From assembly GCA_002197995.1 (NCBI GenBank), contig NGZR01000001.1:2666001-2730000 (forward strand): 64,000 nucleotides of DNA. Direction: 5' to 3'. The stretch comes from Gaeumannomyces sp. JS-464 (lineage: Eukaryota > Ascomycota > Sordariomycetes > Magnaporthales > Magnaporthaceae). Every line of letters starts with the position of its first letter. Positions within the stretch are counted from its first letter, which is position 1. The notes below the pieces were generated by a model. That model made no database searches. It was not told the origin of the DNA and saw only the letters and a program-made list of their open reading frames with translations. Shown here one piece after another: positions 9,899 to 64,000 of this stretch. Made by a program: the position numbers and the translations under genes.

Positions 9899-12190
9899 CT
9901 ATATGGTCAACCCCCCACTGTTCTTCTGCCTCACCTCGCTGGCAGCGAGCAGCGTGCCGTCCCACAGCCGCTGGATCCCCTGGACGGCGCTGTAGATGGG
10001 CCCGACCCAGGTGACGTTGTGGCCCCTGGCGGCCATGCTGGCGACGGTGGCGTTATCGAAGGGGAACTCGAAGGTGACCCTGTTAGGCATGAGCTGGTCG
10101 TGCATACGCGGGTACGCCACAGCCCGGACCACGTCGTCGTCGTCCGCCTGCCCGCCTCCGGCCGAGGCCTGGAGGAGCACGCCGGGCTCGAGGACGCGCC
10201 ACGCGACCTGGCAGGCGCTACTGAGGATGCGCGAGCCGCCCGCGGCGCCGACGGCCAGGACGAGGGAGCCGTTGGCGGCGTGCTCGGCGATGAGCGGGGC
10301 GATGCTGGACAGCGGCCGCTTGCCGGGGCGGACGTAGTTTGACGGGCTGGGCTCGAAGCCGAACTCGTTGCGGACGTTTGGGATGCTAAAGTCGTTCATC
10401 TCGTCGTTGAGGATGATGCCCGTGTCCGGCGTCATGAGGTGGGCGCCGAAGAGGAGGTTGATGGTCGTGGTGCTAGTCACGGCGAGCCCCGAGGAGTCGG
10501 CGGTGACGATGTGGGAGGTGCCGTGGCCCGGGTTTGCGTAGTAGTAGTGGTGGTGGGAAGCTGGGGTTTGCCGGGAAGGCTCGGTCTCGGGTCCGTAGGC
10601 CTCGACGGGCTGGGTGGTGCCGTCGAGGATGCGGCGCCTCGTGCGGGCGGCGAAGGACGCGGTCAGCATGCGGCCCTCGAGGGCGCTGACGCCGGGCACG
10701 AAGGCCGGGTCGCCGAGGCGCGAGCGGGCCGCGTAGCCGAAGCGGAGGGCCTCGCCGAAGCGGTGGGTCGTGAGGTTGGCGTCGGCGAGCAGGTCCGCGC
10801 GCGCGTACTGCTCCATGGTCTTGAGGATGGAGAGGCAGACGGCGCCGCTGGTGGGCGACGGGGTCGACCAGACGCGGTAGCTGCGGAAGTCGACGCTGAC
10901 GGGCGGCGGGGTTGTGACATTATACGAGGCCAGGTCGGCGAGGGTCATGGTGCCGTTTGTTGCGCGGATCAGGTCGATCATGGATTTGGCTGGGGGAGGT
11001 GCGGTGTTAGTTGAGGATACAATGGGGAGTTGGAAAGAGCCTTACCTATCTCGCCTTGGTAGAATGTGTCTGCGCCGTGCCGCCCGATCTTTTCCAAGGT
11101 GCTTGTGTGGGTGGTGGTTGTTAGTGAAAAGGGGCAGCCGTCGCAGCAAGGCATCTCGGGGAGAACGAGGAAAAGAGGGGAAAAGCAAAGGGAAAAAGGA
11201 AGGAGAAACATCAAAGAGGCCACAAGAAAGGGGACAGGAGGACAGGAAAGGCGAGGATGGATGCTCACTTGGCGTATCTCTTCCTCGTAATGGTGTCCCC
11301 TAACTTTAGTAACGTCCCTGCAATAACACGCAGTTAGTGTCACGCACGGCAGGCTACATGTTGGTCGTGCGCCAGATGCTTATAGAACAGCCGCTGCTTA
11401 CCATTTGGGGCAAAGTCTTCGGCCCATGCTGGATCGTCAACCAGGAAATTTGTCGGGGAGGTTTTCAAGGACTCGGCCATGTAGCGAAGCAGATCCTCAG
11501 TGACTGAGTGAAGTTAATGGAATAAATCTGGGGGGTTTTACGGAGCTAGATTTTAGTTCTTGGAGGTCTTACCTGGGAAGCCATCCCGGGCCACCTTGAC
11601 GGCCGGGTTGACGACTGCTCTCCATGGTAGCGACTGTTATAGACCCGAGGTCAGCATGCGTCTTGAACCGAAGAAGCATACCACATATTTGATAGGTCAC
11701 CGAGATAAGAGATACCCACCCCGTATTTATCGTGCAGATACTCAAGACCCCTGAGCTCTCCAGGGATGCCGACAGAGAGCCCGCCATAAACACTGCCCGC
11801 AACATTATCCCTGTACATGTCCTCGCTGGCAGCAGCCGGGGCCGTCTCGCGATAGTCAATGACCTCGTGGCTGCCGTCGGCGCCGCGGACCAGCATGAAG
11901 CCGCCGCCGCCGATGCCGCTGTGGTACATGCCGACGACGCCGACGCAGAGGTTGGTGCCCACCATGGCGTCGGCGGCGTTGCCCCCGCGCTCGATCAGGT
12001 CGATGCCGATCTGCGAGCATATCCTGCTCTCGCTGGCCACGGCGCCCCTGGAGCTGCTGCTGTGCTGGGCGTCGGCGACGGGCTCCTGGTAGGAGTACGT
12101 AGGCGATGCTGAGGCATGGTGCCAACTGTGAGATGCTGCGAGGAGCGGCAGTAACAGCTGCTCCGCGAGCCTTTTGCGGGAGGCTATCAT
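9899..12190 (-). CDS. Gamma-glutamyltranspeptidase (secreted / vacuolar)
   Basis: Cleaves and transfers the gamma-glutamyl group of glutathione. Start ATG 12190. The N-terminus MIASRKRLAEQLLLPLLAAS looks like a signal or anchor sequence. The GGT hallmarks follow in order: GAVASESRICSQIGIDLIER, GGNAADAMVGTNLCVGVVGM, SGIGGGGFMLVRG, DYRETAPAAA, LPWRAVVNPAVKVARDGFPV, GRHGADTFYQGEIAKSM, the autoprocessing and catalytic Thr region (VTSTTTINLLFGAHLMTP) and GAAGGSRI for substrate contact. Six exons; introns at about 11719-11634, 11572-11504, 11401-11318, 11268-11102 and 11045-10990, all GT...AG and phase-consistent. No frame breaks were found, so this copy is intact. Confidence 0.93.
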
Positions 12191-40504: not shown

Positions 40505-42077
40505 GGGGCGGAAGCGGGATTATCACGATGGTGGAGAATGGCAAGAACCGTAGGCGTGCCTGCAGTGACTCGTGGCTAACAAGTGGGCGGATTTGGGGGC
40601 TCGGTGCTCTGTCCGTGACGGGGAGGGGAGAATCAAACGGCAGACCAAGGAGATACTGCCCGACTGCATTATGGAAAGCAGCAGTGGTTGCGTGGGTGTA
40701 GGCACATGCGAGGGCTTAGTTATCCCACGCCCCAAGACAATGGGGAGGATGTAAGGTGGGCGAAAGAGATGGAGAACAAGTGCATCGAAACCGGAGCCGC
40801 GATCAAGGCCGGGTGAGCGGTAGGTGATGTAGTCCGTGAATCCGATACGCAGACAGGCAGGCGCGATGAGTCCCACACATGCTGCTCGCACAAGAGGACC
40901 CTGACTGGTGGCCCGTATCCAGTTTGCGGCCGGCATATCTGCCACCAGCAAAGACGCTGGCAGAACATCAGGAACGCTGGCCACCATGAAAGAGCGGTAG
41001 GCACAAATGGCGCCTCCCCACCTACTTTCCCCAGCAGTCTCGGACGTATTCACGGATCTTGCGGGTCAATGCAGAGTTGCTGCCATCTGACGGGCCCGAG
41101 GGGCCGGCGGACAGATAGATCGGAGGAAACGTGGCAGATAGGCACCCTTCCACCTAGCACTGATGATCTGTCCCTCGTCCGAGTTGTCCCCGCTAAATAA
41201 TGCTACGTAGAACCAAATGGTGTATGTAGAAGCGGCAGAGGCCGTCTGGTGTGCTTGCGTGAACCAACACCCCACAGCCTGGTGGATTCAGGGGCACGCA
41301 CGTCACTTCCACGCCGAGAGATCGCCCCGATTGCGACGACGGCAGCAGCGTCACTGTGTGAGCCCCGGGCGGGAGCTCCGGCAGCAGCGCCAGGGTGACC
41401 ACTGGGCAAGAGTGCCGGGCGGGACGAGGTGAATCAGCGGTCCTGGAGTAGGTGGAAGTCCTGACAGGGGATGAATCACGGCCAAAGAGGAGAAGCGCTG
41501 ACAAGAAGTGAATCGCCGCCTTAAACGAGCGGCAATCTCCGCATCAAAAGGAGAGCCCTCTGTCTCTAGTGCGGGTCCTCTGCCATTGAGGAGGGCATCA
41601 AGCGGAAGGGGCGCACCCTCCACCCCTGGGGGGTGGGCGGCAGGAGGGGGTGCCTCCCCGCCCGGGGAGAGGTCTCGGGAGGAGAGACTGAGAGGGTGGG
41701 CTATTGAAAGGAACTGCCATGTCCAAGTACTCCATTTTGCCACCGGGAGTAAGGCCAATCTGGTCAAATCCGCAGAAGTCTGTTGTTCAGTAACATTTCG
41801 ACGCGCATGACCCGTTCGACATAGCCACTGACTATAAGAGGCGATGGGATATTGCCATCGGCTCCATACTTTTCGAGTCGGCGGTGCCCTTTTATGCCGC
41901 TGTACTAGTGTAGTACGGCTCCATTGACTGAAATACGAAAAGAAATAAGAAAAGAAATAGGAAAGAAAATGAGAGCACGCCCGCCCCTAGCAGGCGGTAG
42001 TTTAACGGAGCGAGCTCGCCTGTCTCGCTATGTCTGGTATTTTGACGGAGGGGCCGGCTTTAATCTACCAGGTAGCT

Positions 42078-44114: not shown

Positions 44115-45666
44115 ATGTCCTACCGCGTGGCTGCTCCCGATGAGTACCTTGCCATCACTGGCATGGGCATCAAGAGCGTGCGCATCACCAAGGCGACATG
44201 GGTTCTTCCCTTCCAGCGCTGCATGCGCTTCAGCGTGCAGCCGCACGACTATGCCATGAACCTACAGGCCATGACCAAGGAGAAGCTGCAATTCCTGCTG
44301 CCCGTCGTCTTCACCATCGGCCCAGACGTCAACCAGCGCGGCGCCAACGCAAAGGGCAAGGCTGTCGAGACGGGCGTCGTCCACGGGGACCAGGAAGCCT
44401 CGGACGCCGGCAGCCACTCCTACGGTGATGAACACTCTCGCGAGGACCGCGGCGATGCGCTCATGAAGTACGCCATGCTGCTGGCCGACTCGGGCAACAA
44501 GGGTGGCAGCAAGGGCGGCGCGGCAGGGGTCCTCGCAGCAAACCTTCCTCGAGAACATCGTCAAGGGCATCATCGAGGGCGAGACGCGCGTGCTCGTCTC
44601 CAGCATGACCATGGAGGAGATCTTCCAGGAGCGCGAGGTCTTTAAGCGCCGCATCTTCCGCAACATTCGCGGCGAACTGGCTCAATTTGGTCTGAAGATT
44701 TACAACTCCAACGTGAAGGAGCTGAAAGACGCGCCCAACTCGTCCTATTTCGAGTCGCTGTCGCGCAAGGCGCACGAGGGCGCCACCAACCAGGCCCGCA
44801 TCGACGTGGCCGAGGCCCAGCTGCGCGGTAACGTCGGCGAGGCGCAGCGCAAGGGCGAGGAGCAGCGCGAGATCGCAAAGATCAACGCCGACACGGCCGT
44901 GCAAAAGGTGGACCGCGACATCGAGCGCGCGCAGGCCGAGGCGAACCTGGCGACGCGCAAGACCATCCTCAACCGCGACGTCGAGATCTCGCGCATCGAG
45001 GCCACGCGCGCCACCGAGGCCAAGGACGAGGACCTGAAGCAAGACGTGCAGAAGAAGAAGGCGGCCGCCGAGCTCGAGCGCCTGCGCGCCACCGACGTCG
45101 TCAAGGCCGCCGTCGCGCGCGAGGTCAAGCAGCAGGCCGCCGACGCGCAGGCGTACGAGGTCACGACGCGGGCCAGGGCCGACTTTGACCGCAACCAGCA
45201 GGCCACCAACGCCTCGGCCTACAGCACCAAGACGGCGGCCGACGCGCAAAACTACGCCGTCATCAAGAATGCCGAGGCCCAGCTCCAGGCCCAGCTCAAG
45301 CAGGCCGAGGGCATGGCCGCCATGGCCGACGCCTACGCCAAGATGTCCCACGCCTTTGGCGGGCCGCAGGGGCTGCTGACCTACCTCATGATCGAGAAGG
45401 GCACCTTCGTCGAGCTGGCCAACGCCAACGCCAAGGCCGTCCAGGGCCTGCAGCCCAAGATCAGCGTCTGGAACACCGGCCCGTCCGGCGAGGGCTCCGG
45501 CAACCAGGGCTCCGGGGTCGACGCCATGCGCAACGTCTACCAGATGCTGCCGCCGCTCATGACGACTATCCAAGACCAGACGGGCATCACCCTCCCCTCT
45601 TGGCAGTTTGGTCACATGGCCACCGAAGCCTCCAAGGGCGAGTACGCCAACGGCCAGAGGTCGTGA
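44115..45666 (+). CDS. Flotillin-like SPFH-domain protein, one frame break
   Basis: Membrane-microdomain scaffold. The SPFH domain runs from MSYRVAAPDEYLAITGMGIK through KATWVLPFQRCMRFSVQPHD and FLENIVKGIIEGETRVLVSS to VFKRRIFRNIRGELAQFGLK. A long Ala/Glu/Lys/Arg coiled-coil of EA-type repeats follows (IERAQAEANLATRKTILNRD, AAELERLRATDVVKAAVARE). The tail is KGTFVELANANAKAVQGLQP and ISVWNTG. No membrane span; such proteins attach by acylation. The frame breaks in the G run at 44526-44529: removing one G joins GGSKGGAAG to SSQQTFLENIVKGI. No intron. Likely one extra base in the assembly. Confidence 0.9.
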
Positions 45667-50003: not shown

Positions 50004-50507
50004 TTAGGTAGGCAGCAGCTTGATAGCAATGCAAGCCGCTGAACAAGAAAAAGAAGCCAAAAGGCGTCGGTTAGTCGGTACGTCCACAAACCCGAGAAAG
50101 AATATCAGCAACGGGGGGATATGAGGCCTACCACAACTAAGCCCAAAAGTAAACCACGAGCCGATAAGGCATGGTCCTTTGCAGCAATCCCAATCACGCC
50201 TACATTCATGGACAGTAGGGATTTTGCGAAAAGTACCCGGGGGGCTCGGCTCTGGAGTCTTGGAGGCTTGAGTAGTCGTGGGGGCCGTCGTGGGGCCCAT
50301 CCGGACAGTATAGGTTGTCGTGCTGGACAAGGCGACTGGGCCAGAGTATCTACCTACGACTTCTGTCTCGACCGTCCATGTTATCACAGAAGTCTGGGGC
50401 ACATAGCTGACCATGCTCTCCGGCTGGCTTGTCGTCTGCGGCTGCGGAAAACCGCTGGCGACCACAGCCAGAGAAGTCAGAGCGGAAAGAGTCTTGAAGA
50501 GGAGCAT
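50004..50507 (-). CDS. Secreted Cys-rich protein, family copy 1
   Basis: ATG 50507. Signal peptide MLLFKTLSALTSLAVVASGF, then a Thr/Ser/Pro-rich middle (TTTYTVRMGPTTAPTTTQAS) that may be O-glycosylated. The compact C-terminus is HECRRDWDCCKGPCLIGSWF followed by TFGLSC. A 92-nt intron, 50131-50040 (GTAGGC, branch CTAAC, TTCAG), follows the first base after SC. The last exon is 35 nt and encodes AACIAIKLLPT. Total 136 residues. The six C-terminal Cys are spaced C-x5-CC-x3-C-x11-C-x2-C, identical to copy 3 at 52668-53220. Probably three disulfides; secreted. Function unknown; an effector or cell-surface role is only a guess. An ATAAATA lies about 105 bases upstream. Confidence 0.75.
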   Translation of the reverse strand: MLLFKTLSALTSLAVVASGFPQPQTTSQPESMVSYVPQTSVITWTVETEVVGRYSGPVALSSTTTYTVRMGPTTAPTTTQASKTPEPSPPGTFRKIPTVHECRRDWDCCKGPCLIGSWFTFGLSCGRPHIPPLLIFFLGFVDVPTNRRLLASFSCSAACIAIKLLPT

Positions 50508-51530
50508 TTTGGGAAGATCGAGACAGATTGGGATATGTCTGGGGAGGTTGGTCGAGGGTGATGGACAGATCATCAGGGTAGGCTGGTTGGCTAGGTGCCT
50601 AGACAGGTATTTATGTTTATGTACCATCCTGTTCTTGGCGAACAACCCTTAGTTTTATCTGCTTAGCAGTGGCTGACATCACTTTGTCATGGATAGAAAT
50701 TAGCGGCAGGTATCTACCATGTAGATGGCGTCAACAGTAGAGAAGCCGTTTACCCCCACCATATTAGTTTTTGTGGCGTCGGATACGCCTTTCCCATCTA
50801 ACGGTCTGATGGCGAACACTCGACGGACAGCCATCGCCCACTTACGTGGGACTCGTCGCCCAACCGCTCGGCTAGGCCGCCACCGCAACCCAAGCTCCTC
50901 AGGCACCCCGTATTGCTCATGATAGCGACATGGACATTGTTTCCACAACGGCCAACAGGACTGTCAGCACAGGCAAAGACAGAAGCCCAGATATAGTCTG
51001 GATGGGGCAAGATAGCAGACAGGAGAACGATAGCTGGGAAAAAGAGGAAGAGAACGGAACGGCGGAGCTGATGGGAGTCGGGTGACAGCGTCGACGGCAG
51101 GGACCGACTCAGACTTGTCCCGCTCAATGTGAATCTGGCGGGCCCGGTCAAAGATCCTGGGGATGACGACGGAGAAGCTTAACGGCATGTATTTGATTGT
51201 TTATTTTATGCGTTCCTCTCAGGCACTCCCCCCAAGTCGGCCCGCCCCCCCGAACCGGGGGAGGCGACCGTCTGCCAAGGTCCTTCTATCATTGACACGA
51301 TATGATGAAAGCCTTTCGTCGTTTCTACGGATTAACGAATCGGCCGTCCATGTTCATTCGCTCATCCGTCATTAATTAAATGCTACTTGCAATATGTGAC
51401 GTGGCGTGCGACCATAGCCCAACGTGAATACATCAACGTGGCTTCAGCCGCCTTCGTCCTTCTGCCGCCACCTACTGTCTGCCAGATACAGGGATAAAGA
51501 TCTACGCGCCGCAAGACAGATCCCTAGACG
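50508..51530. other. Intergenic inside the secreted-protein array
   Basis: About 1 kb, no feature recognised. Confidence 0.45.
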
Positions 51531-52053
51531 CTAAAAATAACAGTCTGTCAGCTGCGATCGACCAAAACACCAGAGGCATGAACGGTGGTATGCAAAAAAC
51601 CTACAACCCGAATACCCGGACGTAAACCACGAGCCAATAGGACATGAACCCCAATCGCCTATGCATTCCTGCTCGTTAGGGATGCGTTTTATTTCGCCCC
51701 GGGTCGGGGTGGGCTCTGGGGCCATCGAAGCCGGCGTGTACGTCAGGCTTGAGGAATGTCTCGTAGCTGTTACGGCTGTCGTAGGGCTGACCGGGATCAG
51801 GGCCAGTGGGGTCTTCGGGCTGACAGGGACGGCTGGGGTCGGGTGAGACGATAAGGGTCTGTATCGTCGGGCTGGCGAGGGCCACTAGGCACGTGTTGGA
51901 GATGCCCCTGGTTGCTTAGACCGTGTATGTGACCACGGAGACCCGAGTTGGGAAGCCGACCGGGCTTCCTGTCCGGCTTACCGGCTGCGGCAAGCTCCTG
52001 GTGACCACAGCCAGGGCCGTGAAGGCGAAAAGGACCTTGGCGAGAGGCGTCAT
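51531..52053 (-). pseudogene. Secreted Cys-rich protein, family copy 2, broken
   Basis: ATG 52053 opens MTPLAKVLFAFTALAVVTRS and LPQPVSRTGSPVGF, clearly like copy 1. It meets a stop (TAA) after VVTYTV, where copy 1 has a Glu codon. Similar sequence continues after the stop (VALASPTIQTL against VALSSTTTYTV). The conserved end (IPNEQECIGDWGSCPIGSWF, TSGYSGC) is in another frame and lacks about four residues including the CC pair. One nonsense change, one frame change and loss of the CC pair make this a pseudogene, unlike the single clean breaks in conserved genes elsewhere in the window. 3' limit is approximate. Confidence 0.65.
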
Positions 52054-52667
52054 TGACGGAGCTTACTGGGAGCAATAAAGAAGGTCTCGATTGTGTGATT
52101 CTGGATAGCTAATATGGCTGGCCATGGATGGAAGAAATGCGGGATATTAAGTGGAGAATGCGGCTCAAGGAGCAAAGTTTATCCTCGATAGCCTCAGGCT
52201 TCTGCTGTCCCAAGATGGTGGTGGAGGTGTCACGATATTGTGGATGCAACTTCACGAGGCCACAGCCCATTACGCATACACCCATATGCAAGGGATAGGA
52301 TTTAAGCAAGATCCTAGAGCCCTGGCGCGGGCACAAAATCGAGGGGACAGTACAGGTAATAGAAAAATGTAAGGGCCAAATCTACTAGTTGGATTCTCTA
52401 AGCTTCGCCGGCCAACAGCTACTTAAATGTCCATCTCCATGGGGCTCGCCAAAGTATGGGAGCGCCAAGCAATGCCACAAGGGGTCTGAACATCATGGAA
52501 AATTGCGCGGCAGAGGAAATTTAATCCTCGAGAGTCTGGTACATATAGGCACGGAAACAGACAGACCCGGAGCCGAGGACTCTACGATTCGCCCACGTCG
52601 AAATAGCTGAACAGCGATCCCACATCAACAGTCGAGCCACCCCGAGCGCAAAACCAACACGCCAAAA
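52054..52667. other. Divergent intergenic region, copies 2 and 3
   Basis: About 610 bases between divergent starts, with a short TA-rich patch. No other feature. Confidence 0.45.
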
Positions 52668-53220
52668 ATGGCTTGCCTGAGCAAGATCGTTCTCGCCCTC
52701 GCGGCCCTGGCAACCGCCGCCAGCGGTATGCCAGCGGTAGTGCCCGCAAGGCCCTTCACCCAGACAATCGGCATGCCCAGCCCCATGACCATCGTGGTCT
52801 CCCCGGTCACCACCACCATATCTCTCATGGTGGTGACGGAAACGGAGAAGCCGCTGCATACAACCGCCTTGATGCAGAACAGCCAGTGGACGGTCATCGC
52901 CTCGACGGGACTCGTCACCCGGACGCTCATCGCGGAGTCTTCCACCACCCAGGCTCCCCAGGTCAGCACAGCCCCGGCCGCGACCCCTTCGTCCCAGCCC
53001 CCGCCGGCCATCGAGCCGCAGAAGAAGAAGAAGAAGGAATGCATGGACGATTGGCAGTGCTGCCGTGGCGCGTGCCTCATTGGGAGCTTTTTTACTCTCG
53101 GGATTTCGTGTAGTATGCTACTGCGCCTACCTCCCCCCTTTTAATACCACGATGGCCAGCTAACAAAATCCGGTTTCCGTATTAGTTGCTTGCCTCGGCG
53201 TTCACGGAGATCTGAAATAA
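52668..53220 (+). CDS. Secreted Cys-rich protein, family copy 3
   Basis: ATG 52668. Signal peptide MACLSKIVLALAALATAASG, a Thr/Ser/Pro-rich middle (VVSPVTTTISLMVVTETEKP), a lysine run (PQKKKKKECMDDW) and the end QCCRGACLIGSFFTLGISC. Intron 53113-53185 (GTATGC, branch CTAAC, TTAG) lies at the same codon phase as in copy 1. The last exon is again exactly 35 nt (IACLGVHGDLK). Total 159 residues. Cys spacing is the same as copy 1. It reads in the opposite direction to copies 1 and 2. Intact. Without splicing the frame would end soon after SC, so the intron is inferred from the copy-1 match. Confidence 0.75.
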
Positions 53221-55612: not shown

Positions 55613-58485
55613 TTAGCCGAATCGGATACCGGCGCTGGGATCCCACGTCCCGGGTTTAGGGCCCGGAGGCGACTGCTGTTGTGGGGTCTCTGAAGTGTCA
55701 CCAGGACTTGTCGGACCCCCAAATTTTATCGCCATACCTTGTGACCACATCTGCTGCGAGGGAACCGGCCGATGAGTAGGTGGCATGTGTGATGACGGTG
55801 CTTCTTGCTGTGGCTGTGGCGACTGCTGTTGTGGTGGCGGGGGCTGCTGCTGCGTCGTATAAAACTGCTGAGGTGGCGGCGCATTGTCTCGAAGCGAAAG
55901 AGATGAAAGAGTAGGCATAGATATTTCGCTATTTCAAAGCAAGCTTAGCGTCAAACACTCGGGGGCAGACAGCATGATGGCGGGAAAGAGGAAAAGGCAA
56001 AAGGGAAAAGCAATAATGGAACATACTCCTCAAGACTCCTTGCGTCCCTCCGCCGTTCAGCGACCCAGACGCGGCACTGATCCCTAAACTGGCCAACAAT
56101 CTTGCTGAGGTCGTTGTAGAACTTGCGTCCGACCTCGACGTTGCTGACAATCTCCTTGTACTTGTAGAACGCAGCGTCAAGCTTCTGCAGCGCCGCCTCG
56201 CGCTCGCGCCCACTCGACGACGCGGCCGTGGCGCGTCTCTGTGCCTCGAACTCGCGGTTTACTCGGCCGACTTCGGTCAACACCTTTTCCTGCTCGTCGG
56301 CCTCGCGCTCGACCAGGGCTAGGTCGTCCTCGTACATGGAGTCGAGGCGACGCTCGAAGAAGTCGTCAAAGTGCGCGGCGGCAAGTTGTGTCCCGGGGTA
56401 GGCGCGTTCGAGGCGGGCGGCTTCGCGCAGCATCTCGGGCTTAATGTCGTCTGCGCGGGCGCGCTCGCGGAGAGACTCGATGCGCTTGCGGCGCCGGCTC
56501 TCGAGGCGGAGCACATCGTTATAGGCACCGCGTAGGCGGCCGAGAGCTGGCTTCACAGGCTCCGGGATCTCGGTGCGCCGACTCGAGGGGACAAAGTCCA
56601 TGAGCCCTCGGTCGGGGCCGGCAAGAATAAGCAGTGTGTCTTCAACCGCGCTGAACTTCTCACGCACGATGGCGTCAGACGATGTTGACGATGCGAGATA
56701 GCCAGAGACTTCGGACACTTGGCCCCAAAGCTTGGCGCCGCCGTTGGGGTCCTGGCGTGACTCCGGGCGCGTCCAGCGTTGGGTGCCATACTTGCGACGC
56801 AGTCGCTTGTCTTCCTCCTCCTCGGCGCCCAGCAGCGACTTGCCCTCCTCGAACACTGCCTGATCGCTGGCCCGGAGCTTCTCAAATGTCGGCGAAGCTG
56901 CGGTGAATGCGGTTGATGGCGTCGGCTTGCCGGATCTCCTCAGCATGCTGGATGAGCGACCCCGGCAGACCGAGCGGCTTCTCCAGCGCCTGTAGAGAGC
57001 CGGGCAGGTTCAGCGATGAAAGCATCTCGTGCAGCTTCTCAGTTAGTGCCTCAAGCTCGTGGATGATGTTCTGGTTCATCAACCTGTCACGGCGTTCCTC
57101 ATAGATGGACACGGCCATGTGCACGGCGAAGGGCACCAATTTCGTAAATAAGGCAGGGCCGAACTCTGCCTGCTCTCCAAGATGGTCATGGGGGCTCGCA
57201 ACTTGGGGCGGCACGCGCGCGATGGCCAGATTTGCGCGGTCCAGGATCTTAAGCTCCGAACTTGCAGGTACAGGGACGAGATAGATGACGTCGTTGTCGC
57301 GCTCGGCGCGCTTCAGATCCTCCTCGGCACGCTTCTTGAGAGCCTTAATCTCGTTGACGACTCCCTCCTTGAGGTAACCACCGCGGGCCTGGCGAAGCCC
57401 CTCATTGGTACACGCAACGGCATCGCGCAGACGGGCGATCTCCTCACCGTATCGGCGCTTCTCGAGACAGTCAAGGGAGGCGCGATACTGGGCAGCCGCG
57501 GAGAAGAAGTGGTGCTTCGTGCTAATGTGGTGGATCCAGGAAGAGCTGATGGCCTGGCTTTTCATGGCGGCCTCAGCAGCGGCGTTGTAGAGGTCCGAGA
57601 CGCGAATGGCCAGCTTGGCAACTGTGGCGTCCTTGTAGTGCTCGGTGACGGCCTTGCGCCAGAAGCACTCTTGGCTCTGGGCGAGCATGAGCTGCATTAA
57701 CGACTCGAGGGTGGTCTCGTCCATGTCCTCGGGAGGGGCGGGCATGCGTAGCTCGGGGAGCACCGAGGTCTTCATGTGGCTGAGCACGCCGGCGGCGTGC
57801 GAGTAGTAGTTGGCCGCGGCCTTGATGGCGTTGGCGTCGCCATGGCTGTTGGATGAGATGGCCAGTTGGCAGTACAGGGCGGCCAGGTTGTAAAGGACAT
57901 TGAGTAGCTCGTATTGCAAGTTGTTTTGCACTAGCGGGCGCTCAGTGTTGTAGCCGAGGGCGGGATACCACGAGAAGTCGGCACCGATCTACGAGTTTCT
58001 GTGGTCAGTCGGTCGGTTGTGTATCGTCCGTGCCGAATCGGTCCCGGCCTAATAGTAGAGGTAGATACGGCAGGGGGGCACCCACATCGATGGGGAACTT
58101 GCCGCTGACCCACACCAGCTGAGCGGCGTAGGCCTGCAGTTTCTGTATGCCGCTAGCGTGGGCTTCACGGACATTGACGGCGTCGCGGCGGAGGGCATCG
58201 ATAACCTCGATGTCCTTGCGGAACATGTCCGGGTGCTGGTCGTACTTGTTAGAGATGTACTGGCGGACAGCTGGGGCGTACGACAGGTGGGTAGCCCGCC
58301 GGAACGGCACAGCCAGCTGATTGGTGGTTTGCCTGCCCGAACCGACAGAGTTAGTACCCCAGTATACGGTCGACCCTGAGTCTAGCTTGGCCTCCTTGCC
58401 CGTGTAGCCGGGGCTGAGGGCCCCGGTAGGAGCTGCGTCGCCGCCAGCGGCGCCAACGGTGCCGGATCGGTCGCACTCACGACAT
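55613..58485 (-). CDS. RIM20: pH-response regulator palA/RIM20 (BRO1-domain scaffold), one frame break
   Basis: Scaffold of the ambient-pH pathway that binds ESCRT-III and the pH transcription factor PacC/Rim101. First exon is only ATGTC (58485-58481). Introns 58480-58333, 58085-57989 and 56026-55929 all fit in phase. The BRO1 domain includes VPFRRATHLSYAPAVRQYIS, VREAHASGIQKLQAYAAQLV, GADFSWYPALGYNTERPLVQ and NLQYELLNVLYNLAALYCQL, then the V-domain helices. A Pro/Gln-rich tail follows the LEEDEISMPTLSSLSL junction and ends GTWDPSAGIRFG. The frame breaks at 56884-56886: RIHRSFADI joins EKLRASDQAVFEEGKSLL when one base is dropped from the TTT run. This is a homopolymer error by pattern. Length after repair about 850 residues, usual for palA. 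Confidence 0.92.
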
Positions 58486-61400: not shown

Positions 61401-63337
61401 CAGGGTGTTGTCATCCGGTCTTCCAATCCTCCCGCTCCAGTTGCTTTTACCTAGGCTTTATCAGTCAGTGGGGGTGCGACTTCAAGATGGCCTGCTCTCC
61501 TAGGTATGCTAGCTTCCCCACCCGCCCCGCGGGGAGCATGGTCGTCATCAGATGAATGGCTCGGCAAGATGACACGAGACGGGCCATGAGGTTGCCCGAT
61601 TTGCAATACACTGGACTCGAGATTTCTCATGTTCCTTCTGATCAAGGTTAAATCCTTTCGACTCTGCTCATCCTCTCCCACAAGGGTGATCATTAATCGA
61701 GGTTGCGTGGTTACCAAGGGGGCAGTAGATGGAAGCCGGACCAGGACAGGGCAGGACGCCAATAAGGCCCCAATGCACATACCCTTGCCTTTCCGCTTCG
61801 GGACGCTTGGTGAATCAGCAGGTTACCCAAGCTGGTGGTTATCGACACCCCTCCCCCTCCAGTCCTATTCCACGCCTCACCCCTCCCGCGCTCCCGTGAA
61901 CTGTTGCGAGAGCACCTCCGAGCGGCCGCCGGGGCAGCCGCCCGCACACATTATTGCTCACTGGATGGGAGATGGCTTTTCCTGGGAGGGAACAGGCAGG
62001 GCCCGCGTTTCCTTATTCCGATGATGATTTACGTGATCTCCCGTCGATGTTCTACATACAGGCATGGTCGTTGGCGCCGCCAGCGCGGTTATGCCGAAAG
62101 TCCGTCCCATCTTGCGTGGGATTCTTGGTCGCCGTCTCTGGAAGTGGGTGCCCTACGATGGGGACGGCGCGGATTGCTCGGCCGGCGCGTCCGAAGCCAG
62201 AGCCCGCCGTTGATAACAGCCTGAATTTGCATCGTTGGCGCCTTTCTGTCACCCGCTAACGGCGTTTGGGTTCAGGTCCGGGCACCGGTCGGGCCTGCCA
62301 ACCACCCCTCCATCTCTGCTTGAATCCCAGCGGGGTTGCTCGCCTTTTGTCAAACAGCCTGACAACCTGCCTTGTCCAACGCGATTACGGATGGCGCAAG
62401 AGGCCGAGCGGGGAGGGCTGACCTTCCTCCTTCTCCTTGGATCGATCAGACTCCCGGAGCGTGGAAAAGGACTATCAGGAACACGGATGGAATAGCCGTA
62501 CACCCTGCATCCGCCGCTGCCACTTCCCTTGCCCCCCAGCAGCAAACAAACTCGCTTAACTTATCCAGAGATGGGCACATACATGGGCCAGCGTGCATGT
62601 GCCACTCTGCCCAGGCAATGTGCCTTGGGACCAGGATCCCATCGTATTGGACCGGCCTTGTCCTTCCCTCCTCCGCTACCAGACACATGGCACCATACCA
62701 GGCCCAGCCCACTGGCAGCACACCCCCTGACCCTGCTGGCGGCCCCTCTTCCTCCCATCGGACCTACCTTGGGTGTCCGGAGGGGAAGAATGTGAGTTGG
62801 TGGCCACAGATTTGGCGCCATTCTTGACCGTCTCGAAATACGGCACGGCAGTGGACGACGGCAATCCCTGACGCCCTTGGTGGGATGTTGGAGTGGGAGA
62901 GGGCAGAGCTGCGCGGACAACTCTAAAGGGACTAGGGCTATCAGCTCTGGAGAGAGAAGCACCACTCACACCAAGTCTACAGATCATCTTCCTCTAGCCA
63001 GATCATAGCCCCACCTTCATCCCTTCTCTGTCCCTATATAACATCGTACCTGCACCACACTACCTCGTTCTCGTTGTCTCAGTGGCCCCAAGTCCCTTTT
63101 CTGGTCATTGCCTCTCGGTGTGTCGGCGGCTCTCCTGTCGTGTCCCTGGCCCCTGAGGTCTTCCCCCTTTCTTATACCCTTCGTTGCCCCCGCGGTCCCG
63201 GCGCAGACAAGGACCACGAGACCCCAAGCTTGGCTGCAGCCCAAGGAGTCTGGTATACCCAGCGCTTTCATCCCATACACGCTATCTTTCACACACCATA
63301 GACAAGTAGGCGCCGCTGCGCCACACCCGCCGCAGCC
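58486..63337. other. 4.8 kb without recognisable genes upstream of palA and a P450
   Basis: Short open frames on both strands only, none with a domain I know. No tRNA, rRNA or transposon seen. The last 300 bases carry a TATA element and leader for the P450. It may hold regulatory sequence, non-coding RNA or badly decayed genes. Confidence 0.45.
63035..63041 (+). promoter_or_regulatory. TATA-like element of the P450 gene
   Basis: TATATAA about 300 bases before the ATG at 63338, with a long pyrimidine-rich leader between. Confidence 0.35.
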
Positions 63338-64000
63338 ATGAGGGACGGCGTTATCCTCCTCCTCTACCTGGCGATACCGAGCCTGCTCTTCTCGGTGCTC
63401 AAGCAGATCATCGGATGGGGCAAGAAGAAGCAGCAGGTTCGGCGAGACCAAGTTCCCGGGCCCCAGGCAGTTCCCATCGTCGGGCGGATACACGACCTCC
63501 CGCGGTTCCAGCTCTGGCTCAAGTTCAAGGAGTGGGCCGACATCCACGGCCCCATCTACCAGACTCGCGCCGTCGACACCACCTTCGTCGTCATTTCGGA
63601 CGAGAAGATCGCCGAGGAGCTGCTCGTCAAGCGCGGGCACATCTACTCTGGCCGTCCGCAGATCCGCTCGCTCATCGGGCACAAAGAGGGCATTGGCTAT
63701 GTCGCTCTGATGGACAGGCATGGTGAGCATAGCCCCTTTTTTTCCTCAACAAGTTCCCTTCCATTCGCATTGGGACCTGTCTGCATATGCCGGTTCAGCA
63801 CTGACCTCGGCCCGATCTCTCGTCTTCAGACCACTGGCAACGCCAGCGCAAATGGGTGCACGCCGCCATGGCCGAGGCCTACCGCAACCACTTCTACGGT
63901 CACGTTGAGGCTGAGACGACCAAGTACCTGGCCATGCTGCTGGCGGACCCGTCCCGCTTCTACTGCTACACGCGCGAGCACTGCGGCCGCATCATGAGCC
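63338..64000 (+). CDS. Cytochrome P450, 5' part only
   Basis: ATG 63338. An N-terminal anchor (VILLLYLAIPSLLFSVLKQI) is followed by the proline hinge QVPGPQAVPIVGRIHDLP and the P450 N-terminal domain (FQLWLKFKEWADIHGPIYQT, EKIAEELLVKRGHIYSGRPQ). Intron 63723-63829 leads into DHWQRQRKWVHAAMAEAYRN (helix C, with the heme-contact W/R region). The gene runs off the window at 64000, so the heme-binding Cys is not seen. Family and substrate cannot be told from this part. ER membrane monooxygenase by family. Confidence 0.9.

What the first reader, a model, noticed from the sequence alone, without database searches (positions are those of the whole stretch)
50004..53220. A three-copy family of secreted six-cysteine proteins with fixed spacing
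Two intact copies and one broken copy share a signal peptide, a Ser/Thr-rich middle and a conserved end. The Cys pattern C-x5-CC-x3-C-x11-C-x2-C is identical in copies 1 and 3 (DWxCC, CLIGSxFT, SCxAC). I know no named family with this pattern. The middle parts have diverged strongly while the Cys end is kept, as expected for fast-evolving secreted proteins such as effectors or cell-surface factors.
Basis: partly seen in the sequence, partly recalled or inferred. Interest (0 to 1): 0.75.

Follow-up and report, generated by a model that had tools for sequence, protein, structure and literature searches.

The report
Orphan six-cysteine secreted fungal protein family
The window holds three members, one of them broken, of an apparently undescribed family of small fungal proteins that carry secretion signals and end in a short domain with six cysteines, one of which can sit at either of two places; the only named relatives found are in two grass-root pathogens.

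Summary
Copies 1 and 3 are intact two-exon genes (136 and 159 aa) whose stop codons end exactly at 50004 and 53220; copy 2 is broken. A phase-1 intron right after the fifth motif cysteine is shared. Profile searches found three database proteins: MAPG_02979 (Magnaporthiopsis poae), GGTG_11955 (Gaeumannomyces tritici) and one unnamed; the two named ones show the predicted spliced tail. No Pfam family matched and no convincing PDB match appeared.

Five motif positions are constant; the sixth cysteine is either the first of CC (3 of 10 members) or in the C-terminal tail (7 of 10), six in all 10. Broken copy c4 departs from this. Two low-confidence models agree on helix-loop-helix. Best reading: a secreted Ser/Thr-rich stalk bearing a small disulfide-braced helical domain at the fungal surface or apoplast. 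A membrane-anchored reading stays open; function is not shown.

The parts
50132..50507 (-). copy 1 (c1), exon 1: signal-peptide-like start, Ser/Thr/Pro-rich middle, first five motif cysteines
   Evidence: spliced protein 136 aa
50039..50131 (-). c1 intron, 93 bp, phase 1, GT-AG, right after the codon of the fifth motif cysteine
   Evidence: same place in the other intact members
50004..50038 (-). c1 exon 2: begins x2-C (sixth motif cysteine), short tail, stop
51561..52053 (-). copy 2 (c2), broken: remnants in different frames, in-frame stop, CC-x3-C stretch missing
   Evidence: closest to c4 at C1:14945.5 kb, 78% over 237 aligned bases
52668..53112 (+). copy 3 (c3), exon 1: signal-peptide-like start, Ser/Thr/Pro-rich middle, KKKKK run, first five motif cysteines
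53113..53185 (+). c3 intron, 73 bp, phase 1, GT-AG
53186..53220 (+). c3 exon 2: x2-C (sixth motif cysteine), tail, stop

Best explanation
A lineage-limited family of small secreted proteins. Shown by sequence: a hydrophobic N-terminus typical of a signal peptide, a fast-diverging Ser/Thr/Pro-rich linker without cysteine, and a C-terminal domain of about 35 residues with six cysteines, split by one conserved phase-1 intron. Inferred: the protein is exported through the ER, where the linker is O-mannosylated into a stiff stalk and the domain closes three disulfides into a two-helix hairpin (ladder 11-23, 7-26, and 0 to the tail cysteine at 30-32, counting the first motif cysteine as 0). In the CC variant the partner of cysteine 0 has moved from the tail to position 6, so cysteine 0 would pair locally (0-6). 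The conserved hydrophobic loop between cysteines 11 and 23 (CLIGSxFTxG) is the likely contact surface, against a membrane or a partner protein, at the hyphal surface or in the plant apoplast. Duplication with diverging linkers and several broken copies fits birth-and-death turnover of surface or effector-like genes.
For: Two intact genes in the window and four elsewhere share layout and intron. Ten loci found by mutually overlapping searches. Two independently annotated proteins carry the predicted spliced tail: MAPG_02979 ends C-x2-C-x5-C and GGTG_11955 matches the spliced exon 2 of the C31 copy. Motif positions 0, 7, 11, 23, 26 are cysteine in 10 of 10 members with a readable motif and tail, and the sixth sits at 6 in 3 and at 30-32 in 7, keeping the number even. 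Positions 0, 7 and 11 fall on one helix face (0, 340, 20 degrees), and both models put them in one helix (135-151 of P0001; 95-112 of P0003).
Against: Both structure models are weak: mean pLDDT 46.6 and 52.8, best ten-residue block 77. The second helix does not hold all its three cysteines: C170 of P0001 and C121 of P0003 lie outside it, and position 32 lies 180 degrees from 23, so the ladder is not tidy. Broken copy c4 has both CC and a tail cysteine plus one extra cysteine, against a strict swap. The tree cannot say whether the CC variant arose once (18% and 10% of 200 bootstrap trees), and the association of the two states (1/120) ignores kinship. A membrane-like stretch overlaps the domain. 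No expression, secretion or plant contact data.
Confidence: 0.5

Rival explanations
1. Single-pass membrane protein: the signal peptide is cleaved, the Ser/Thr-rich part is an outside stalk, the segment from motif cysteine 11 to just past 26 crosses the membrane, and the basic tail is inside; the cysteines near the membrane could be lipid-modified.
For: Kyte-Doolittle means of the best 17-19-residue stretch are 1.36-2.40 in nine members; uncharged runs are 16-25 residues in ten; K/R/H often follow; GGTG_11955 has a long charged tail after the stretch, which also speaks against a GPI anchor.
Against: The M. poae protein and the C30 copy L009 carry Lys inside C-x2-C. An even cysteine number kept by moving one from position 6 to the tail is hard to explain if the two places lie on opposite sides of a membrane.
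Confidence: 0.25
2. Precursor of a processed peptide: the linker is a propeptide, cut at basic pairs by a Kex2-type protease to release the Cys-rich end.
For: A basic pair lies shortly before the motif in 5 of 10 members, by eye (c1 RK, c3 KKKKK, c5 KR, L012 KKR, P0003 RR; sequences).
Against: No such pair in the other five; the place is not conserved.
Confidence: 0.15
3. Decaying duplicates without present function.
For: Four of ten loci look damaged: c2 and c4, the C31 copy L008 without an in-frame ATG, and the C12 copy L016 broken in frame upstream of the motif.
Against: Six of ten are intact and keep the cysteines while the linker diverges. L008 and L009 have relatives 64-65% identical in other genera. 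No sign of repeat-induced point mutation: composite index below 0 in all seven stretches tested. Assembly indels could mimic some breaks.
Confidence: 0.1

Closest known systems
MAPG_02979 (Magnaporthiopsis poae) and GGTG_11955 (Gaeumannomyces tritici), hypothetical proteins
   Same: Same layout and six-Cys domain, tail variant; found by profile at E 3.9e-21 and 1.5e-14; closest to the C30 copy L009 (65%) and the C31 copy L008 (64%).
   Different: Neither has the CC pair of the window copies. No function is given; neither locus tag occurs in the paper library.
alpha-hairpinins (plant defence peptides)
   Same: Two helices joined by a loop with cysteines bridging them; C-x3-C in the first helix.
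   Different: Family motif is C-x3-C-xn-C-x3-C with four cysteines (passages of PMC7191063); here the second pair is C-x2-C and there are six cysteines, in a fungal gene. Likeness of plan only.
Small secreted cysteine-rich proteins / candidate effectors of plant-associated fungi (general class)
   Same: Short, signal-peptide-like N-terminus, cysteine-rich, clade-limited, duplicated and diverging.
   Different: A class by description, not a homologous family; an effector role is untested here.

Membership tests
The Magnaporthaceae six-Cys family defined here | Motif positions 0, 7, 11, 23 and 26 all cysteine | tested here: met
   10 of 10 members with readable motif and tail; broken c2 and c4 and the unspliced database protein P0002 were left out of this count
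The Magnaporthaceae six-Cys family defined here | Phase-1 intron directly after the fifth motif cysteine | tested here: met
   6 of 6 intact models, and L008; L016 only by eye with a GC donor
alpha-hairpinin | C-x3-C-xn-C-x3-C | tested here: not met
   Second pair is C-x2-C in 10 of 10; definition from passages of PMC7191063
Any Pfam family | Score over the curated cut-off | tested here: not met
   c1: none; c3: best 12.4 bits against cut-off 28.1; c5: best 6.3 bits against 27; P0001 and P0003: none at E 0.01
Secreted effector | Cleaved signal peptide and presence outside the hypha | not testable with these tools
   N-termini look right by eye only; no predictor or experiment was available
Secreted effector | Expression or effect during plant contact | not testable with these tools
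   no transcript data
GPI-anchored wall protein | Hydrophobic C-terminal end without charged residues after it | tested here: not met
   polar or charged tails follow the hydrophobic stretch; judged by eye, no GPI predictor was run

The most novel reading that the evidence does not exclude
An undescribed small disulfide fold, confined to the Magnaporthaceae, in which one half-cystine has moved during recent duplication from the C-terminal helix to a neighbouring-cysteine position, so that members of one genome fold the same hairpin with two different disulfide arrangements; the broken c4, which has both cysteines, may be a relic of the step between.
Probability: 0.3. Interest if true: 0.55.

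Novelty: new member of a known kind. Interest (0 to 1): 0.38.

Why it matters
Families restricted to one fungal family are the usual source of candidate surface and effector proteins, but most have no domain name. This one gives a compact signature (five constant cysteines plus a movable sixth and a fixed intron) by which it can be recognised in root-infecting relatives of the rice-blast fungus, and a natural set of paralogues in which a change of disulfide arrangement could be tested directly.

Tried and rejected
Single-sequence search with c1 found nothing (14 candidates), which would wrongly have suggested no homologues; the profile searches did find them. One search scored only the 7990 candidates sharing most words, so it is capped; one search had only 7 candidates, and the tool needs shared exact five-residue words, so distant relatives can be missed. 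PDB searches gave nothing or only weak chance-like matches (fibrillin 1 E 0.069, a taste receptor E 2). Weak genome hits looked at and not taken as members: L014, L015 and L040 (motif scan; read in frame for L014 and L015), L056. The C32 hit (E 0.0077, five stops) was not read. Other hits with E above 0.1 were only passed through the motif scan or not read. No structure library search was run, because both models are of low confidence. Literature: listing; locus tags, 0 papers; listings; PMC11905480 abstract, outline and sections 6 and 9 read, with no mention of this family there; supplements could not be searched, so the family may be listed in one. A knottin-like reading (recalled) was considered because of CC-x3-C, but nothing here tests it.

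Full report
What is there. The coordinates of the finding are exact. Copy 1 lies on the minus strand with its ATG at 50507, a 93-bp GT-AG intron at 50131-50039 and a stop ending at 50004; the protein has 136 residues. Copy 3 lies on the plus strand, ATG at 52668, a 73-bp intron at 53113-53185, stop ending at 53220, 159 residues. Copy 2, between them on the minus strand, is broken: its signal-peptide remnant and its motif remnant lie in different frames, there is an in-frame stop, and the CC-x3-C stretch is missing. Copies 1 and 3 match at E 4e-12 in the window and 3.9e-8 in the whole genome.

The family in this genome. DNA and protein searches of the window's own genome (53.0 Mb, 34 contigs) give ten loci: c1, c2 and c3 in the window; c4 and c5 at C1:14.945-14.948 Mb; L009 and L012 on C30; L008 and L011 on C31; and L016 on C12. 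L016 was weak at first (E 0.47) but its own motif piece finds L009 at E 3.5e-5, and the M. poae protein finds it at 0.0012. Six of the ten have an intact model from ATG to stop (c1, c3, c5, L009, L011, L012). c2 and c4 are broken in frame, L008 lacks an in-frame ATG, and L016 changes frame upstream of its motif. Some of these breaks could be assembly errors; I cannot tell. There is no sign of repeat-induced point mutation: the composite index was below 0 in all seven stretches tested.

Gene structure. In 6 of 6 intact models the single intron is phase 1 and directly follows the codon of the fifth motif cysteine; introns are 68-114 bp. L008 shows the same (101 bp, phase 1). Exon 2 then opens with x2-C. 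This is why a plain reading frame misses the last cysteine or cysteines.

Relatives elsewhere. Searching with c1 alone found nothing. A profile of six members found MAPG_02979 of Magnaporthiopsis poae (E 2.2e-19) and an unnamed protein P0002 (only 7990 candidates were scored). A profile of nine motifs, with the linker masked, found these two and GGTG_11955 of Gaeumannomyces tritici (E 1.5e-14), three of seven candidates. MAPG_02979 is closest to L009 (65%) and GGTG_11955 to L008 (64% over exon 1, 57% over the tail). Both were annotated by others and carry the tail that I predicted by splicing. The window's organism is therefore probably in or near the Magnaporthaceae; its rDNA looks like a sordariomycete to my eye, but this was not tested against a database. 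I found neither locus tag in the paper library.

The cysteine pattern. Counting the first motif cysteine as 0, positions 0, 7, 11, 23 and 26 are cysteine in 10 of 10 members whose motif and tail can be read (c1, c3, c5, L008, L009, L011, L012, L016, MAPG_02979, GGTG_11955). Each of the ten has six in the domain; further cysteines occur only in the N-terminal signal-like region of some members (for six of them; P0001). I left out c2 and c4 (broken) and P0002 (read into its intron). c4 is an exception to the rule: its pieces hold CC, an extra C-x-C and a tail cysteine. All three CC members lie on contig C1. A tree of 38 columns cannot say whether the CC state arose once: one origin in 18% of 200 bootstrap trees, and in 10% when the switch and tail columns are removed. 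So the clean split of the ten (1 in 120 if rows were independent) may reflect very few events.

How it may work. The even number of cysteines kept in both variants suggests that all six are paired, outside the cytosol. Positions 0, 7 and 11 fall on one side of a helix. Two AlphaFold2 runs with five-row alignments, starting from MAPG_02979 and from GGTG_11955, both gave helix-loop-helix over the motif, but at low confidence (mean pLDDT 46.6 and 52.8; best ten-residue block 77). Helix 1 holds cysteines 0, 7 and 11 in both. From this I infer a disulfide ladder 11-23, 7-26 and 0-tail, with 0-6 in the CC variant. That step is inference. The linker has no cysteine and is 27-38% Ser+Thr in six intact proteins, which suits an O-mannosylated stalk.

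The main rival is a membrane anchor. The motif's second half is hydrophobic (Kyte-Doolittle 1.36-2.40 in nine members), and GGTG_11955 has a long charged tail behind it. But with a membrane-insertion scale only 4 of 10 members fall below zero and 4 of 10 are at 2 or more, while the cysteines are kept in all ten. A cleaved peptide precursor is possible for the 5 of 10 with a basic pair before the motif (by eye).

History. c4/c5 look like an old copy of the c2/c3 pair: c2-c4 match at 78% over 237 aligned bases and c3-c5 at 73% over 129. A gamma-glutamyltranspeptidase gene lies about 5 kb from c4, and a paralogue lies in the window about 39 kb from c1, which would fit an old segmental duplication but is not proof.

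Verdict. The family is real, clade-limited on present evidence, and without a named domain. It is a new member of a known kind: small, probably secreted, cysteine-rich proteins of plant-associated fungi. The movable sixth cysteine is the unusual part and can be tested. Effector function is not shown.

Noticed in passing
window 9902-11041 (-) and L005:30-482 (+): Gamma-glutamyltranspeptidase genes (PF01019) lie near both clusters of the family, about 39 kb from c1 and 5 kb from c4; possible old segmental duplication.
   Followed up: partly
G000:C31:2083.6 kb (L008): The copy closest to GGTG_11955 has no in-frame ATG in this assembly although its motif, intron and long tail are kept.
   Followed up: partly
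G000:C1:14945.5 kb (c4, L005:5501-6050): Broken copy with more cysteines than any other member: CxC, CC and a tail cysteine.
   Followed up: no
L005:8234-8356: Tandem run of a short T/C-rich unit (TTTCCTATTTCC type) just past c5; it also matches window 41930-41970.
   Followed up: no
window 55951-57988 (-): BRO1 plus ALIX V-domain protein, which would fit a PalA/Rim20-type pH-signalling gene (recalled).
   Followed up: no
window 63302-63997 (+): Start of a cytochrome P450 gene cut by the window edge.
   Followed up: no
window 44467-45663 (+): Band 7 / SPFH-domain protein, flotillin-like by recall.
   Followed up: no
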